A DNA stretch of 9,529 nt, from positions 1 through 9,529 of the forward strand of contig JAGGXT010000208.1 of assembly GCA_021162905.1 (NCBI GenBank), written 5' to 3'. The DNA is from Candidatus Odinarchaeota archaeon. Its GTDB lineage: Archaea; Asgardarchaeota; JAGGXT01. The number at the start of each line of letters is the position of its first letter. Positions within the stretch are counted from its first letter, which is position 1. The notes under the pieces were generated by a model. It was given only the letters and a program-made list of their open reading frames with translations, searched no databases and had not been told where the DNA came from. The position numbers and the translations under genes are program-made. Below are positions 3,336 through 9,436 of the stretch, piece after piece.

Positions 3336-5024
3336 ATGGAAGTAGACACTAAAAACCCATTAACAATGCGTGCAATATTTTTTGGCATTTTTCTTGGGGC
3401 ACTTTTGGATTTTTTGGATATCTATTTATCATATAAAGTTGGTATTGCTGCAATTGGAGGTACTTTTATCTTGGGATACCTACTACTTAAGCTAACTGGT
3501 GAATATAACTACAGAGAAAATGTTGTGATTCTAATTATCGTTGGAGCGATGTCTTTGCCTGCTTTTGGTGTGAGTGCCAATATAGCGGCTCTTGTAGTTT
3601 TTAGGGATTACCTGGCACATACGATCTATATTTCTATACCATTAATAGTAGTTGTGTCGCTGGTTGGCTCTATTCTTGGTGTACTTCTGCTATATCCCTT
3701 GAGAAAACAATTTTTAGAGCTTAGATGGCCCATGATATTACCAACAGCAACTATTGTTAAGGCACTTGCCGAAAAGGGCGAGTATTTTAGAAGAGCTCTG
3801 TATGGTTTAATTTCATCCATGATAATAACAATCTCAGCTTTTGTTTCAAACCTAAGAACCCTTAGATTAAAGTACATGCCATCCTTTATAGGTTTTGAGA
3901 TTTCTCCTTTAATGTTTGCGGTTGGATTTTTTATATCGTTTACTGGTTCTCTACTACTATTAATAGGCTCAATATATAGCATTTTGGTGTGGTATTTCAT
4001 TGAGGGAGGGGTCTCAAATATAACAATCAGTGAGCATATTACAAATCCGATGATCTTTTCTATAGCAATTCCCATGATGGTTACAACGGCCTTCTTAAAT
4101 TTATATGAAAACAGACATGTGTTTAAAGAGACTTTCAGAAATCTTAGAGTTGGAGATGACGAGGGCTTAATCCCAAGTTGGGCATCCTTTGCATCTCTAG
4201 TTTTATTACCAATTTTCTCTCTGATTGGTTTAGCGTTGGTCCCTGGACTGCCATTTGATATGATTATTGATATAAGCAAAGTCATCGTTTTTGCATTACC
4301 TATTGTTTTTATTTCTGCCATCTTTCTTGCTAGAGCGAGAGGAGAGTCTGGATTTTCAGTAAGCTTCACAGTTGATGTTGTTCTAATTCTTGCGACTGTC
4401 CTTTTCCTTCCTGATGTTGAAGATATGTTTATAGCCTTTGCAATATTAGGGTCCTATGAATTTGCATCATTGATATTTTTGAATTATATGAAATTTGGTC
4501 AGCTGACAAACGTCGATGAAAAAACTGTCTTTAAAGCTATTTTAATTGGAATAATTCCTGGAGTTGTTATAACCGCACTCTCTATTTGGTCCTTTCACTA
4601 TCTACTTGGAGGACTCGGAAGTGAGAATTTCCCCGTGCCAAATGCTTATGCGGCCGGGGGATATATCTTAGGGGTAGTTCAAGCAATAAAAAGTGGAGTG
4701 GTACCACCTATTTATGATCCTTACTTAGTTGTAGTTTCTGTAGTATTAACTATTGCCTTACAACAAGTTTTTAAGAGACTAAAAGTTCGCGGATTCTCAC
4801 CAATAATACTTGCAATAGGTATGCTTGTTCCCCCATCATACATATTTCCGATATTCCTTGGTGGTCTACTTGATTTATATTTAAAAATCAAAAACAAGCA
4901 TGATAAGAGCAAAGCCAAAAAGGTTTATGAAAACGCACTTGTCTTCCTCAGTGGTGTTGCTGGTGGCGAAGGCATAGTGTTACTGTTTATGACATTACTC
5001 GTAATAATTTTCCTACTAATATGA
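3336..5024 (+). CDS. OPT-family (oligopeptide transporter-type) permease
   Basis: This 562-residue polytopic membrane protein probably has 14-16 helices. It opens with the OPT hallmark segment LTMRAIFFGIFLGALLD (9-25), followed by Tyr/Lys-Val-Gly (30-36), equivalent to 'N-Y-x-x-L-K-x-G'. The segment RWPMILPTATIVKAL (130-144) matches the OPT 'fP...a.a..l' signature. FEISPLMFAVGFFI (187-200) matches the mid-protein 'eis..l..vG.' helix. The C-terminal half has a second Gly/Pro-rich region including PVPNAYAAGG (about 432-441) and GMLVPPSYIFPIFLGGLLD (about 492-510), also typical. OPT proteins take up peptides, modified peptides or metal chelates by secondary transport; many archaeal members have unknown substrates. 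It is divergent from the EamA exporter and is followed by a gene-poor stretch. I am confident of the family but not of the substrate. Confidence 0.82.
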   Translation: MEVDTKNPLTMRAIFFGIFLGALLDFLDIYLSYKVGIAAIGGTFILGYLLLKLTGEYNYRENVVILIIVGAMSLPAFGVSANIAALVVFRDYLAHTIYISIPLIVVVSLVGSILGVLLLYPLRKQFLELRWPMILPTATIVKALAEKGEYFRRALYGLISSMIITISAFVSNLRTLRLKYMPSFIGFEISPLMFAVGFFISFTGSLLLLIGSIYSILVWYFIEGGVSNITISEHITNPMIFSIAIPMMVTTAFLNLYENRHVFKETFRNLRVGDDEGLIPSWASFASLVLLPIFSLIGLALVPGLPFDMIIDISKVIVFALPIVFISAIFLARARGESGFSVSFTVDVVLILATVLFLPDVEDMFIAFAILGSYEFASLIFLNYMKFGQLTNVDEKTVFKAILIGIIPGVVITALSIWSFHYLLGGLGSENFPVPNAYAAGGYILGVVQAIKSGVVPPIYDPYLVVVSVVLTIALQQVFKRLKVRGFSPIILAIGMLVPPSYIFPIFLGGLLDLYLKIKNKHDKSKAKKVYENALVFLSGVAGGEGIVLLFMTLLVIIFLLI

Positions 5025-5632: not shown

Positions 5633-6973
5633 TTATTTGCTCATTTTTCTCCATGCATCTTCTGCTGCGGCTATTATTGGATAAGCTGTTGGCGGTGATG
5701 TAAGTAGTGGATGCGTACCTATTTGCATTAGGCAAAGTTCTGCAGCGGTCAATCCCTCCTGGATTGCAAGTCCTACGATATTTATCATTTCTCCAACACT
5801 CTTTCCACCAATGATCTGTCCTCCTATTATGACACCGTCCTTTGAAAATATAAGTTTGACCTCGATAGAACTTGCATCAGGGATTTTTGAAGGATGCCTA
5901 TCAAATCCCTTAGCTCTACCTACAACTATTTCGAAGCCTTCTTTTATGGCAACTTCTTCTGTGATTCCTGCCGCGGCAAGAGCTATGTTTCCTGCGTAGG
6001 TTGAGAATATGCCTATATCACCTTTATTTTTTCTTATGACTCCAAGATTGAATAGGTTTGTCCCAGCTATACGTGCTTCGAAGCATGCTGTTGATGCAAG
6101 CATTAGCTTGGTTGGTTTTCTTGTGAAGAAATCTTTGTGTTCAACGCAGTCTCCTACAGCGAAAATATCTGGTTCACTGGTTCTCATATATTCGTCAACC
6201 CATATCCCACCGCTTGTTCCAACTCTTATGCCAGCTTTCTTTGCAAGTTCTGAATTTGGTTTATAACCAACGGAGAAAATGACTAGGTCAGCTTCGATTT
6301 TACCCCCGTCTGCAAGCTCGACTCCCTCAACCCTATTTTTCCCTAAGATCTTTTTAGCTGTAGAATTTAGATAAATTTTTATGCCATTTGCTTCAAGCTC
6401 CTTTTTAACGATTTCTCCGAACTCTTTATCAAAGGCCGCAGGTAGTAGATGATCCATCATTTCGACGATTGAAACGTTCTTGCCCAATTTTCTTAGTTCA
6501 TCACTTACTTCAACGCCTATGAAGCCCCCTCCCACAATGACTATGTTTTCTGCTTCCTTAACTGCATCATACAACTTTTTTAGATATTCAAAGCTTTTTG
6601 AAACAACGTAAACTCCTTCTAAATTGCTTCCTTCGATGTTTAAGAATATTGGCTGTGATCCTGTGGCAAAAACAAGTTTTTCATATTCTATCTCCTCCCC
6701 ACTCGACATTTTAACGATTTTCCTATTTTTATCTACGTCTACGACCTCACCAATTATGAATTGTACTCCTAAATTTTCTACTGATTTAGTGGGCATTATG
6801 TCTGCTTCAACCGAACCAAGCGTGGCAAAAATGTACGGGATTCCGCAAGGAATCATACTTACCTCTTCTTTCTTTACTATGACAACACTTTTTTCGGGGT
6901 AAAATTTTTTAACTGTAGCAGCAGTAACCATGCCAGCAGGGCCACCACCAATAATTACGGCATCGTATTTCAT
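5633..6973 (-). CDS. FAD/NAD(P)H oxidoreductase, CoA-disulfide reductase / NADH oxidase family
   Basis: A 446-residue cytosolic flavoprotein of the pyridine nucleotide-disulfide oxidoreductase superfamily. The FAD-binding GGGPAG is at 9-14 near the N-terminus. A single redox Cys43 lies in IPCGIPY, as in CoA-disulfide reductases, NADH oxidases and polysulfide reductases (one Cys rather than the CxxxxC of glutathione reductase types). ATGSQP is at 103-108. The second Rossmann motif, VGGGFIGVE (147-155), binds NAD(P)H and is followed by an acidic residue (Glu171) at the end of its second strand. The FAD-ribityl motif FAVGDC is at 271-276. A C-terminal dimerisation domain ends with H421-P. Family reactions include NAD(P)H-dependent reduction of CoA disulfide, polysulfide or oxygen. 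I cannot choose between them. I prefer the ATG at 6971-6973, with GGTG (6980-6983) 6 nt upstream, over an in-frame GTG at 6983-6985. A T-run follows the gene, which appears monocistronic. Confidence 0.9.
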   Translation of the reverse strand: MKYDAVIIGGGPAGMVTAATVKKFYPEKSVVIVKKEEVSMIPCGIPYIFATLGSVEADIMPTKSVENLGVQFIIGEVVDVDKNRKIVKMSSGEEIEYEKLVFATGSQPIFLNIEGSNLEGVYVVSKSFEYLKKLYDAVKEAENIVIVGGGFIGVEVSDELRKLGKNVSIVEMMDHLLPAAFDKEFGEIVKKELEANGIKIYLNSTAKKILGKNRVEGVELADGGKIEADLVIFSVGYKPNSELAKKAGIRVGTSGGIWVDEYMRTSEPDIFAVGDCVEHKDFFTRKPTKLMLASTACFEARIAGTNLFNLGVIRKNKGDIGIFSTYAGNIALAAAGITEEVAIKEGFEIVVGRAKGFDRHPSKIPDASSIEVKLIFSKDGVIIGGQIIGGKSVGEMINIVGLAIQEGLTAAELCLMQIGTHPLLTSPPTAYPIIAAAEDAWRKMSK

Positions 6974-7028
6974 TTTACACACCACTCAGTATTTGAGAAC
7001 TTCAAGAGTATCTTAAACTTAGAAAAAT

Positions 7029-7142
7029 TTAAACTTTTTTAATTTTTTTAAAAACTTTAAAACTCATTCCAGCAGTAAACCCTTTAATTCGTTCAATATT
7101 CTCAAGTATGACCTTGATAAGAAGTGAAACATCTCGCTTCAT
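7029..7142 (-). pseudogene. Truncated HEPN-family toxin (HepT/DUF86) remnant
   Basis: A 37-codon frame starts at the ATG 7140-7142 and stops at TAA 7029-7031. It begins MKRDVSLLIKVILENIERI and continues with GFTAGMSFKVF. This is the standard N-terminal helix of HepT-type HEPN proteins: 'M-x-R-D', 'L-x-x-I-L-x-x-I-x-x-I', then 'F', 'T', 'G', 'M-x-F-x-x-F'. A complete HepT is about 110-145 residues and carries the RNase motif RX4-6H in its second half. Here the frame runs out in an A/T-rich tract, so that motif is absent. The ATG overlaps the TGA of the nucleotidyltransferase relic (ATGA), the usual arrangement of MntA-HepT pairs. It lies just upstream of the oxidoreductase gene on the same strand, and its decayed 3' end may now contribute to that gene's promoter. 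Confidence 0.75.
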
Positions 7143-7408
7143 ATATAAATAGCCTCATTAAGAATTTTCTCTTTTAATTCGGGTCGAATGTCTTTTTTAG
7201 GTACAAGATCTACCTTTATTCCAAGAATATCAGAAAGGTATTCTCTAATCTAACAAAATCAACCAATAAATCAATATCACTCATTTCTTTCTACTCTCCC
7301 CTTGCATAGGAGCCAAAGATTCCAATCTCTTTTACCTTAAAACGTCGTTTCAGTTTCTCTTTATGTTTAGCTATTTTTTATCTCTTCAAGTTCCTTCGTT
7401 TTTTCCAT
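7139..7408 (-). pseudogene. Decayed minimal nucleotidyltransferase (MntA antitoxin)
   Basis: On the minus strand, from the ATG 7406-7408, the frame reads MEKTKELEEIKNS and stops. After a shift in an A6 run (7374-7379) it continues as EKLKRRFKVKEIGIFGSYAR. A TAG (7291-7293) then interrupts the nucleotidyltransferase signature GSYARGE-x-KE-MSDIDLLVDF, which holds the GSxxxGxxxxxSDxD metal- and nucleotide-binding core. A second shift, probably with loss of several codons, follows 'VDF'. The last frame gives EYLSDILGIKVDLVPKK and a normal end (LNEAIYI, TGA 7139-7141). In intact pairs MntA AMPylates and inactivates the HEPN toxin. With two frameshifts and a stop this copy cannot make a working protein. 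The family call is secure. Confidence 0.85.
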
Positions 7409-7480: not shown

Positions 7481-7486
7481 GGAGGT
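7481..7486 (+). promoter_or_regulatory. Strong ribosome binding site GGAGGT deciding a TTG start
   Basis: GGAGGT is followed by three consecutive TTG codons at 7487, 7490 and 7493. Spacing is 0, 3 and 6 nt respectively. Six nt is the normal distance in this window (compare the EamA, OPT and oxidoreductase genes), so the third TTG is the likely start. Confidence 0.6.
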
Positions 7487-7492
7487 TTGTTG

Positions 7493-8881
7493 TTGATATC
7501 GTACATCGAGATATTAAATAAAAGTTATTATGAGGGTAAGCTTGTCTCAGCAGACGATTTTAACATGAGGGTTTGGAAAGTAGCATCTAAAATAGTAAAG
7601 GAGTACAAAATAAAGTACGACCCTGAGAACATAATACCGTGTGATAATACTTTAGCTGATGATGTGTTTAACGCTGGGTTAGAGTTGTTTCTTGAATTGG
7701 GAGTTTATAATATTAGTAGCCGACGAGTGATACGAATTGACGAATCTGATGTTAAAGAGTATTTAAAGAATGTACGTGATGAAATTGCTATAGGAGCTGG
7801 TAAGGAGGCCAGAATACTAAGGAAGAGGGAGGTTGAGGATACCAGACCACCCATGATACTTGGAGGAGTAATTGAAGGAAATCCCGAAGAAGGAGAACCT
7901 TTCATTAAACTATATGAAACCATAGCCAGAGAACCCTTAATAGATGGCATATATTTTGGACCACCAACAGTAATAAAGGGAGTAACAATAGTTCATGATT
8001 CGCCTCTCGAAGTTATAGCAGCTGCTAATGCAGTTAAATGGATAAAAGAAAGCTTACAAAGAGTTGGTAGACCTGGATTACATTTGATCAGTGCGCAACC
8101 CTCTGCAATAGGAGACATGACAGCTTTTGGTATAGAGAATGGTCTAACAAAGACCGATGCTATAGCAATTCCTATCATTAGTGAAATGAAGACAGATAAT
8201 GCTCAATTAAGCAAAGTTGCGTATGCTTTGGAAAATGACATAATTCCAAATCCATATCGTGTTCCAATGGTTGGTGGATTTGCTGGAGGCCCAGAAGGAA
8301 CAGCTCTTGTAGGAGTAGCTAGCCTATTTATGGCTCTTATAATTTATCAGGGATATAAAGGGTACATAAATTTCGATGTTATCAGAGTGATGCCACCTGG
8401 AAGTACAGCAAGAGATGTTCTTTGGGTAAGAAGTATTGTCGGGCAAGCAACCCAGAGAAATACAAAGGTCATTTCAGGTGCCGGATTAGTTACATACGCA
8501 GGACCAGGAACAGAAATGATGTTTTATGAAATTGCTGCTGGTACAATAACACACACGGTGTCTGGATTTCATGTTATGCATGGAGTGAGGAAAACCAAAT
8601 TAACAAAACCGAATCAATGTAGCGGACTGGAAGCAAAATGGGAAGCTGAAGTAGCTTATGCTTCAACGAAACTTAAGCGTGAGGAAGCTAATGAGATAGT
8701 TAAGATTTTGTTAAAAAAATATGAAGATAAAATAAGAGATGCCCCAGAGGGATTGACTTTTGGAGAAATATACGATTGGAAAACACTCAAGATAAAACCA
8801 CAAGTATACGAAACTTACATAAAAATTAAAAAAGAACTGGCAGATTTAGGCTTGGATTTTAGTATAGTTGAATCAGAATAG
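7493..8881 (+). CDS. Pyrrolysine-free MtmB-family methyltransferase homologue
   Basis: This 462-residue protein matches monomethylamine:corrinoid methyltransferase MtmB over its whole length (about 458 residues in Methanosarcina). Shared landmarks are GRPG (192-195), LTKTD (218-222), SEMK (230-233), the GGFAGG loop (261-266), YAGPGTEM (335-342) and a final Leu-Gly-Leu-Asp-Phe. MtmB moves a methyl group from monomethylamine to the corrinoid protein MtmC, using pyrrolysine encoded by in-frame TAG. Here the pyrrolysine site, seven residues from the Arg of RPG, is Ile199 (ATC, 8087-8089). The residues aligned with Glu229, Glu259, Gln333 and Tyr335 of M. barkeri MtmB are Ala225, Tyr255, Gly331 and Val333. 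The frame is otherwise intact and ends in TAG. I therefore infer a stable methyltransferase-fold enzyme with a different substrate, as in non-pyrrolysine MttB relatives. It starts at TTG 7493. No corrinoid protein is adjacent. Confidence 0.88.
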   Translation: MISYIEILNKSYYEGKLVSADDFNMRVWKVASKIVKEYKIKYDPENIIPCDNTLADDVFNAGLELFLELGVYNISSRRVIRIDESDVKEYLKNVRDEIAIGAGKEARILRKREVEDTRPPMILGGVIEGNPEEGEPFIKLYETIAREPLIDGIYFGPPTVIKGVTIVHDSPLEVIAAANAVKWIKESLQRVGRPGLHLISAQPSAIGDMTAFGIENGLTKTDAIAIPIISEMKTDNAQLSKVAYALENDIIPNPYRVPMVGGFAGGPEGTALVGVASLFMALIIYQGYKGYINFDVIRVMPPGSTARDVLWVRSIVGQATQRNTKVISGAGLVTYAGPGTEMMFYEIAAGTITHTVSGFHVMHGVRKTKLTKPNQCSGLEAKWEAEVAYASTKLKREEANEIVKILLKKYEDKIRDAPEGLTFGEIYDWKTLKIKPQVYETYIKIKKELADLGLDFSIVESE

Positions 8882-8893
8882 CATTGTGTCTTT

Positions 8894-9436
8894 CTAATCT
8901 TCTAACTCTACAATAAAGTCACAATGATCATCACCTTTATAAAGTGACGTTGGATTGCTGACTTTCATTTTCGGGTTAAGAACTTCGGCAACACCAACAT
9001 CAAAGTATGCATAAATTTGGCAAATCTCCTCTGGTGTTCCAATGCTCTTCCAGATATCTACCAGTGGGCATGCAGTATAGTATATATGGAACTTCTTCTT
9101 ATTTAGCGCTAATAATTTAAACTTATATTCCATTGAGGGATCCCAGCCACCTTCAATCTTATAGAAGTCAAGGACATTGGCTTTTCCAGGAGTTATGTTA
9201 AGCTCTTTTACTTTCTCTTCAGCATACTTTCTTCCGAGAAATCGCATTACTTCACATGCTAACTTTATTCCCTCTTCTCCGTATTTTTCTTTAAGCATTT
9301 TCACGAAACCACCGAATAATAATGCCCATTGTTTTGCAAGAAATTTAACTCTATCTTCTGGTGTCATTTCTCCTATTAAACTTCTTGCTAATTCTAATAG
9401 TTCCTTTTCTTTTTCGGTTAATTCTTTTTCACTCAA
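8894..9436 (-). CDS. Protein resembling L-2-amino-thiazoline-4-carboxylate hydrolase family
   Basis: A 180-residue soluble protein. The N-terminal 80 residues are highly charged and helical. The C-terminal half is alpha/beta and holds four spaced conserved-looking features: CPLVDIW (123-129), Cys139, Asp146 within YFDVGVAEVLNP, and GDDHCDF (168-174). This Cys-P, D, N/P, G-D-x-x-C-x-F pattern is what I recall for the ATC hydrolase domain (PF14196), which in Pseudomonas opens the thiazoline ring during L-cysteine formation. Many members from anaerobes have no known role. Cys61 is a further Cys. The start is the TTG at 9434-9436 with AAGGAGG (9444-9450) 7 nt upstream. It ends with TAG 12 nt from the stop of the MtmB homologue, tail to tail. 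A thiol- or metal-dependent hydrolase or a ligand-binding protein are both possible. Confidence 0.6.
   Translation of the reverse strand: MSEKELTEKEKELLELARSLIGEMTPEDRVKFLAKQWALLFGGFVKMLKEKYGEEGIKLACEVMRFLGRKYAEEKVKELNITPGKANVLDFYKIEGGWDPSMEYKFKLLALNKKKFHIYYTACPLVDIWKSIGTPEEICQIYAYFDVGVAEVLNPKMKVSNPTSLYKGDDHCDFIVELED

What the first reader, a model, noticed from the sequence alone, without database searches (positions are those of the whole stretch)
7493..8881. Full-length MtmB homologue without pyrrolysine and without the pyrrolysine-site residues
Seen: an intact 462-codon frame with MtmB landmarks along its whole length, but the codon aligned with pyrrolysine 202 (M. barkeri numbering, RPG-x-x-x-O) is ATC for Ile. 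Around gap-free anchors (LTKTD/SEMK, ISG...YAGPGTEM), the residues aligned with Glu229, Gln333 and Tyr335 are Ala, Gly and Val. Glu259 falls on Tyr after a one-residue insertion. These are the side chains I recall around pyrrolysine in the crystal structure. Known: non-pyrrolysine members of the MttB family changed substrate (MtgB demethylates glycine betaine). Inference: this is the MtmB-family counterpart, a methyltransferase with a new methyl donor and possibly a different activation mechanism. I am not aware of a characterised example.
Basis: partly seen in the sequence, partly recalled or inferred. Interest (0 to 1): 0.9.

Follow-up and report, generated by a model that had tools for sequence, protein, structure and literature searches.

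The report
Pyrrolysine-free relative of methylamine enzyme MtmB
This archaeal gene encodes an intact relative of a methane-pathway enzyme that normally needs the rare amino acid pyrrolysine; it lacks that residue and belongs to a large group with a different active site and an unknown methylated food compound, a kind of enzyme first shown to work only in 2026.

Summary

It is no isolated oddity. It sits in a large group (119 distinct rows, archaeal and bacterial names) with its own signature: Glu128, Tyr154, His197, Phe/Tyr/His255, Arg366 together in 114 of 119 rows and 0 of 125 others. The statement that no example is characterised is out of date: MtqB of Methanococcoides methylutens Q3c (PMC13044021, 2026) is a Pyl-free MtmB acting on tetramethylammonium and choline. 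I could not obtain MtqB's sequence to compare.

Six relative genomes (Bathyarchaeota drafts) show no PylS over cut-off and no MCR hit, but RACo (6/6) and MtrH (4/6); corrinoid-protein genes adjoin the methyltransferase genes. Most likely: a Pyl-independent methyl donor:corrinoid methyltransferase feeding tetrahydropterin/Wood-Ljungdahl metabolism; substrate unknown, perhaps a zwitterionic quaternary amine (inference). The window holds no corrinoid gene; its host is unknown, perhaps Asgard.

The parts
7493..8881 (+). Pyl-free MtmB-family (PF05369) methyltransferase, 462 aa, TTG start, TAG stop
7481..7486 (+). GGAGGT, probable ribosome-binding site 6 nt before the TTG start
   Evidence: sequence; function inferred
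8087..8089 (+). ATC codon (Ile199) at the column of pyrrolysine 202 of M. barkeri MtmB
   Evidence: positive control
7874..7876 (+). Glu128, group-specific (118/119 rows; Gly132 in MtmB1)
7952..7954 (+). Tyr154 (119/119 rows of the group, 4 of 125 others; Val157 in MtmB1)
8081..8083 (+). His197, two residues before the Pyl column on the same strand (117/119 rows, also 37 of 125 others; Gly200 in MtmB1)
8255..8257 (+). Tyr255 at the column of Glu259 (Phe/Tyr/His in 118/119 rows, 9 of 125 others)
8588..8590 (+). Arg366 (117/119 rows, 15 of 125 others; Ala368 in MtmB1)

Best explanation
The gene encodes a working, pyrrolysine-independent methyl donor:corrinoid methyltransferase of the MtmB fold. 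It would take a methyl group from a methylated compound that does not need activation by Pyl (most likely a quaternary ammonium compound, possibly one with a carboxylate) and pass it to Co(I) of a separate MtxC-type corrinoid protein. A RACo/RamA-type protein would keep the cobalt reduced, and an MtrH-type methyltransferase would hand the methyl to a tetrahydropterin for the Wood-Ljungdahl methyl branch rather than to coenzyme M for methane. Shown: fold, loss of Pyl and its contact residues, group, group signature, partner genes in relatives. Inferred: activity, partner use in this host, direction of methyl flow, substrate class.
For: Fold of MtmB over 449 residues at 1.5 A with a confident model, pLDDT 95.5. 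Conservation over a group of 119 distinct rows. Corrinoid-protein gene (PF02310+PF02607) 3 nt upstream of a group member at L003 7890-8543, with PF02607 hits beside group members in G002, G004 and G005 too. RACo gene 129 nt after the group member in L006. In the 6 relative genomes: PylS over cut-off 0/6, MCR-alpha 0/6, RACo 6/6, MtrH 4/6. In G003 a cluster of two Pyl-free MtmBs of another branch, two corrinoid proteins, RACo, MtrH and three URO-D proteins. Precedent: MtqB demethylates tetramethylammonium and choline without Pyl (PMC13044021, Results read).
Against: The window has no corrinoid protein, RACo or second methyltransferase among the proteins scanned in its 9.5 kb. The host genome is not held. 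Partner genes come from relatives at 42-45% identity. In the wider Thermoproteota sample 54 of 128 MtmB places had no listed PF02607 hit within 5 kb (list cut). The URO-D proteins in the G003 cluster leave transfer to coenzyme M or another acceptor possible. No substrate or activity data. Whether the signature side chains point into the cavity was not measured, because model coordinates are not exposed; strand register supports it for His197 only.
Confidence: 0.7

Rival explanations
1. It is an MtqB-type enzyme: same substrates (tetramethylammonium, choline) and same subgroup as Methanococcoides MtqB.
For: MtqB is the only characterised Pyl-free MtmB I found.
Against: The paper's text puts the MtqB branch near Pyl-encoding MtmBs, with a conserved Met and Cys and aromatics near the ligand; the window group lies apart from the MtmB1 set with strong support and has a Glu/Tyr/His/Arg signature. 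The MtqB sequence could not be obtained here, so this is not a direct test.
Confidence: 0.1
2. It is still a monomethylamine methyltransferase that manages without Pyl, using His197/Glu128 or Tyr255 in its place.
For: MtqB showed low monomethylamine activity without Pyl, 11 nmol/min/mg.
Confidence: 0.08
3. It demethylates something other than a quaternary amine, for example an N-methylated guanidino/amide compound or a non-nitrogen methyl or chloromethyl donor.
For: In relatives an arginase-family gene lies next to (L003) or one ORF away from (L002) an MtmB gene, and a formamidase-family gene next to one in L004. A Pyl-free MtmB-superfamily protein of 'Ca. Formimonas warabiya' had the highest fold change on dichloromethane (PMC9768040, passages).
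Against: Neighbours differ between relatives, none is in the window, and the MtmB copies next to them are divergent copies outside the window group. The dichloromethane-induced protein was reported as about 30% identical to other family members.
Confidence: 0.25
4. It is a decaying or non-catalytic MtmB remnant.
For: Stand-alone gene in the window, without partner genes; a broken gene lies just upstream.
Against: Intact frame, probable ribosome-binding site, near-identical second record P0001, and the five signature residues kept.
Confidence: 0.06

Closest known systems
MtqB, non-Pyl MtmB homologue of Methanococcoides methylutens Q3c (PMC13044021)
   Same: MtmB family, no pyrrolysine, works with a cognate corrinoid protein
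   Different: MtqB is in a methanogen, next to its corrinoid gene mtqC, and lies near Pyl-MtmBs in the printed tree according to the paper's text; the six sampled genomes of the window group show no MCR or PylS. Sequences not compared directly.
MtmB1, monomethylamine methyltransferase of Methanosarcina barkeri (PDB 1L2Q, 1NTH)
   Different: No Pyl; Glu229, Glu259, Gln333, Tyr335 replaced; Glu128, Tyr154, His197, Arg366 in place of Gly, Val, Gly, Ala; insertion at residues 290-296
MtgB and other non-Pyl MttB-superfamily enzymes (PDB 2QNE, 9YCE)
   Same: Barrel methyltransferases without Pyl that use quaternary amines; same logic (substrates recalled and from PMC13044021)
Ga0180325_111810, non-Pyl MtmB-superfamily protein of 'Ca. 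Formimonas warabiya' (PMC9768040)
   Same: Pyl-free MtmB relative outside methanogens
   Different: Bacterial, induced on dichloromethane; function untested; not compared directly

Membership tests
MtmB family (PF05369) | Profile match over the whole length above the curated cut-off | tested here: met
   291 bits against 25; residues 12-454 of 462 on profile 10-450
MtmB family (PF05369) | MtmB fold | tested here: met
Monomethylamine:corrinoid methyltransferase MtmB (enzyme) | In-frame TAG (pyrrolysine) at position 202 | tested here: not met
   ATC at the column; two control genes show TAG there
   Ala225, Tyr255, Gly331, Val333
Monomethylamine:corrinoid methyltransferase MtmB (enzyme) | Transfers methyl from monomethylamine | not testable with these tools
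   needs assay
Non-Pyl MtmB homologues | PF05369 protein with a sense codon for a standard residue at the Pyl column | tested here: met
   Ile199, codon ATC. In its group of 119 distinct rows the column reads Leu 63, Ile 30, Val 17, Ala 3, Arg 2, Thr 2, Asn 1, Lys 1; rows were taken as open frames or database proteins of 423 aa or more, so genes with an internal TAG would mostly have been missed
MtqB (QMA/choline methyltransferase) | Groups with MtqB; its conserved Met/Cys and aromatics | not tested
Three-component corrinoid methyltransferase system | Corrinoid protein gene adjacent | tested here: inconclusive
   None found in the window; adjacent in relatives G002-G005 by Pfam and in G001 by motif only
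MttB/MtgB superfamily (COG5598) | Closest fold is MttB | tested here: not met

The most novel reading that the evidence does not exclude
The window group is a separate enzyme class within the MtmB fold: it replaced the Pyl chemistry by a Glu128/Tyr154/His197/aromatic255/Arg366 site that binds a methyl donor not yet assigned to any corrinoid methyltransferase (the Arg/Glu pair would suit a zwitterion), and it feeds C1 metabolism in archaea and bacteria that make no methane and no pyrrolysine.
Probability: 0.35. Interest if true: 0.62.

Novelty: new variant of a known kind. Interest (0 to 1): 0.43.

Why it matters
Non-Pyl MtmBs are widespread, and according to PMC13044021 only MtqB among them has a demonstrated function. 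A five-residue signature separates one large group from the other members sampled here and gives a direct handle for predicting, docking and assaying its methyl donor. If that donor is new, it adds an anaerobic C1 source for Bathyarchaeia and other uncultured lineages and bears on how an enzyme family can gain or lose dependence on the 22nd amino acid.

Tried and rejected
Searched and found empty or uninformative: whole genome of the window (none held); NCBIfam for the protein (0 families); Rfam and tRNA scans of the window (nothing); first genome-contig scan (52 stretches, none a relative); plasmid records by tblastn (no match).

Idea that the downstream PF14196 gene (8894-9436, -) belongs to the system: PF14196 has a hit in 6 of 6 relative genomes and in 12 of the other 58 MtmB-bearing genomes. 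In the six, no hit shares a contig with an MtmB gene. In four others (G219, G066, G222, G032) they share a contig, but the nearest pair is about 16 kb apart start to start (G222) and the rest 97 kb or more. So there is co-occurrence without linkage; left as a remark. An earlier count said 'never same contig', which is wrong. Idea that an OPT transporter goes with MtmB because L004 also has one near its MtmB genes: the two OPT proteins are only 24% identical over 235 columns, so not pursued.

Against or limiting my reading: 74 of 128 MtmB places in Thermoproteota had a listed PF02607 hit within 5 kb and 54 did not. TIGR02367 has hits in 55 of 64 genomes; only 5 of 64 pass its cut-off, and the control genomes show the same weak hits. 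Six genomes is a small number, and all are draft MAGs, so absences are weak evidence. His197 alone is not specific to the group (37 of 94 rows of other branches have it). The group was drawn from the same alignment in which the signature was then counted. Host assignment rests on one gene.

Full report

The pyrrolysine site. In two alignments Pyl202 falls on Ile199 (ATC). Glu229, Glu259, Gln333 and Tyr335 fall on Ala225, Tyr255, Gly331 and Val333. As a positive control I read MtmB genes of two Thermoproteota genomes through the same procedure. G405 and G459 show an in-frame TAG exactly at the Pyl column and keep Glu, Glu, Gln, Tyr. Both genomes pass the PylS cut-off, and in G405 pylS lies on the same contig, about 1.2 kb from that gene.

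How common it is. A search of 5.8 billion proteins, in which the 7995 candidates sharing most words were scored, gave 323 relatives at E <= 0.001, the best 120 listed. The nearest are P0001 (98%), P0002 (57%, named Candidatus Bathyarchaeia) and P0003 (55%, same name). In those 120 plus the window, the Pyl column is Leu 64, Ile 28, Val 12, the rest mixed. Such proteins were found as open frames, so Pyl genes with an internal TAG would mostly be missed or appear as pieces. A tree of 98 rows (IQ-TREE, LG+C20; bootstrap/SH-aLRT) puts the window with P0002 (100/99), inside a set of 32 rows (100/99); MtmB1 sits in a separate set of 18 (100/99). That set of 18 also holds Pyl-free sequences with Gln, Cys, Lys, Ile, Leu or Met at the Pyl column. 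Of the 31 rows near MtmB1 (MtmB1 included), 30 keep Glu at the Glu259 column and 27 Tyr at the Tyr335 column. So Pyl-free sequences as a whole do not form one clade: some sit next to Pyl-MtmB, and the window's group stands apart.

A group signature. In an alignment of 268 MtmB rows (244 distinct), the group that holds the window (139 leaves, 119 distinct rows, FastTree support 0.955) has its own conserved residues. Glu128 is found in 118/119, Tyr154 in 119/119, His197 in 117/119, Phe/Tyr/His255 in 118/119 and Arg366 in 117/119. All five occur together in 114 of 119 rows, in 0 of 31 rows near MtmB1 and in 0 of 94 other rows; singly, His197 also occurs in 37 and Arg366 in 15 of those 94. The group includes database entries named Bathyarchaeia, Syntrophobacter and Sulfotelmatobacter. 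By secondary structure these residues lie at or near the ends of barrel strands; His197 is two residues before the Pyl column on the same strand. That they line the cavity is inference.

Relatives and their genes. Six genomes with named contigs (L001-L006, Candidatus Bathyarchaeota; G001-G006) carry group members. In L003 a corrinoid protein gene (PF02310 + PF02607) ends 3 nt before the first of two tandem MtmB genes. PF02607 hits lie next to group members in G002, G003, G004 and G005. In G001 an ORF with the DxHxxG motif stands there (not run through Pfam, and the list was cut). In G006 the contig starts inside the gene, and a RACo gene follows it. In these six genomes PylS over cut-off is 0 of 6, MCR-alpha 0 of 6, RACo 6 of 6 and MtrH 4 of 6. 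G003 also has a cluster MtmB, corrinoid, MtmB, corrinoid, RACo, URO-D, MtrH, URO-D, URO-D (one 280-aa frame between RACo and the first URO-D was not scanned), whose MtmBs belong to a different Pyl-free branch. Over the MtmB-bearing Thermoproteota sampled (64 genomes: 20 of 256 in the class search and 47 of 398 in the phylum search, three shared), 74 of 128 MtmB places lie within 5 kb of a listed PF02607 hit, a lower bound because that list was cut. PylS passes its cut-off in 5 of 64 and MCR-alpha in 21 of 64.

The window's own surroundings. Upstream on the other strand is an FAD disulfide-reductase-family gene (5633-6985), and before it an OPT transporter (3336-5024, +). Downstream and convergent is a PF14196 gene (8894-9436). 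None is an obvious partner. The OPT protein's named relatives are Odinarchaeota (70%) and Asgardarchaeia (60%), while 2 of 398 Thermoproteota genomes have a match, the better at 44%. The host may thus be an Asgard archaeon, on the evidence of one gene; the closest named relatives of its MtmB are Bathyarchaeia.

How it most likely works. Shown: family, fold, absence of Pyl, replaced contacts, group signature, partner genes in relatives. Inferred: the enzyme moves a methyl group to Co(I) of an MtxC-type corrinoid protein, RACo keeps the cobalt reduced, and MtrH passes the methyl to a tetrahydropterin. Characterised Pyl-free MttB-family enzymes use quaternary amines, as does MtqB (tetramethylammonium 37, choline 42, monomethylamine 11 nmol/min/mg; none with trimethylamine or glycine betaine; PMC13044021 Results). 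A quaternary amine is therefore the most likely class here as well. Arg366 and Glu128 would fit a zwitterion, but this is a guess.

What is known. [quoted passage not shown] It mentions Asgard archaea among the carriers. PMC9768040 (passages) reports a non-Pyl MtmB-superfamily protein induced on dichloromethane. PMC11291895 (passages) proposes non-Pyl MttB in Asgard archaea feeding the Wood-Ljungdahl pathway. PMC9723677 (passages) reports MtmB in Sifarchaeia, where only MtbB carries a Pyl codon. PMC11264602 and PMC8065059 (passages) mention mtmB in other archaea. PMC10945360, PMC10667645 and PMC9635834 were seen as passages only. In seven full-text searches and the passages read I saw no description of this five-residue signature or a substrate for this group; none of the searches asked for the residues themselves, and most subscription papers are not held, so this is weak evidence of absence.

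Verdict. Observation confirmed; interpretation partly right; novelty reduced by MtqB. A solid, testable variant within a known kind.

Noticed in passing
window 7100-7400 (-): Remnant of a minimal nucleotidyltransferase-like gene (GSYARGE and SDIDLLVDF motifs, recalled as typical of that family) broken by a stop and by a change of frame.
   Followed up: partly
P0129-P0161: Full-length relatives close to Pyl-MtmB (up to 57% identity) with Gln, Cys, Lys, Ile, Leu, Met or other residues at the Pyl column, nearly all keeping Glu259 and most Tyr335: possible recent losses of Pyl, or Pyl written as Lys in some.
   Followed up: partly
window 8894-9436 (-) and G001-G006: PF14196 proteins occur in 6 of 6 genomes of the window group and 12 of 58 other MtmB-bearing genomes, without close linkage to MtmB genes.
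   Followed up: partly
L093 (G002:C234): A group member carries a TAG away from the Pyl column, where homologues have an aromatic residue; probably a mutation or assembly error.
   Followed up: no
L086 (G003:C22), 5212-16381: Pyl-free MtmB cluster with two corrinoid proteins, RACo, MtrH and three URO-D proteins in a genome without PylS over cut-off or MCR hits.
   Followed up: partly
L002, L003, L004: Arginase-family (L002, L003) and formamidase-family (L004) genes near divergent MtmB copies in relatives; a possible hint at N-rich substrates.
   Followed up: no
L001 4605-5144 and L004 10777-11298: DUF2284 (predicted metal-binding) genes directly after and convergent with the MtmB genes in two relatives.
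   Followed up: no
window 3336-5024 (+): OPT transporter with 8 relatives at E <= 0.001 among the candidates scored, the two named ones from Odinarchaeota and Asgardarchaeia.
   Followed up: partly
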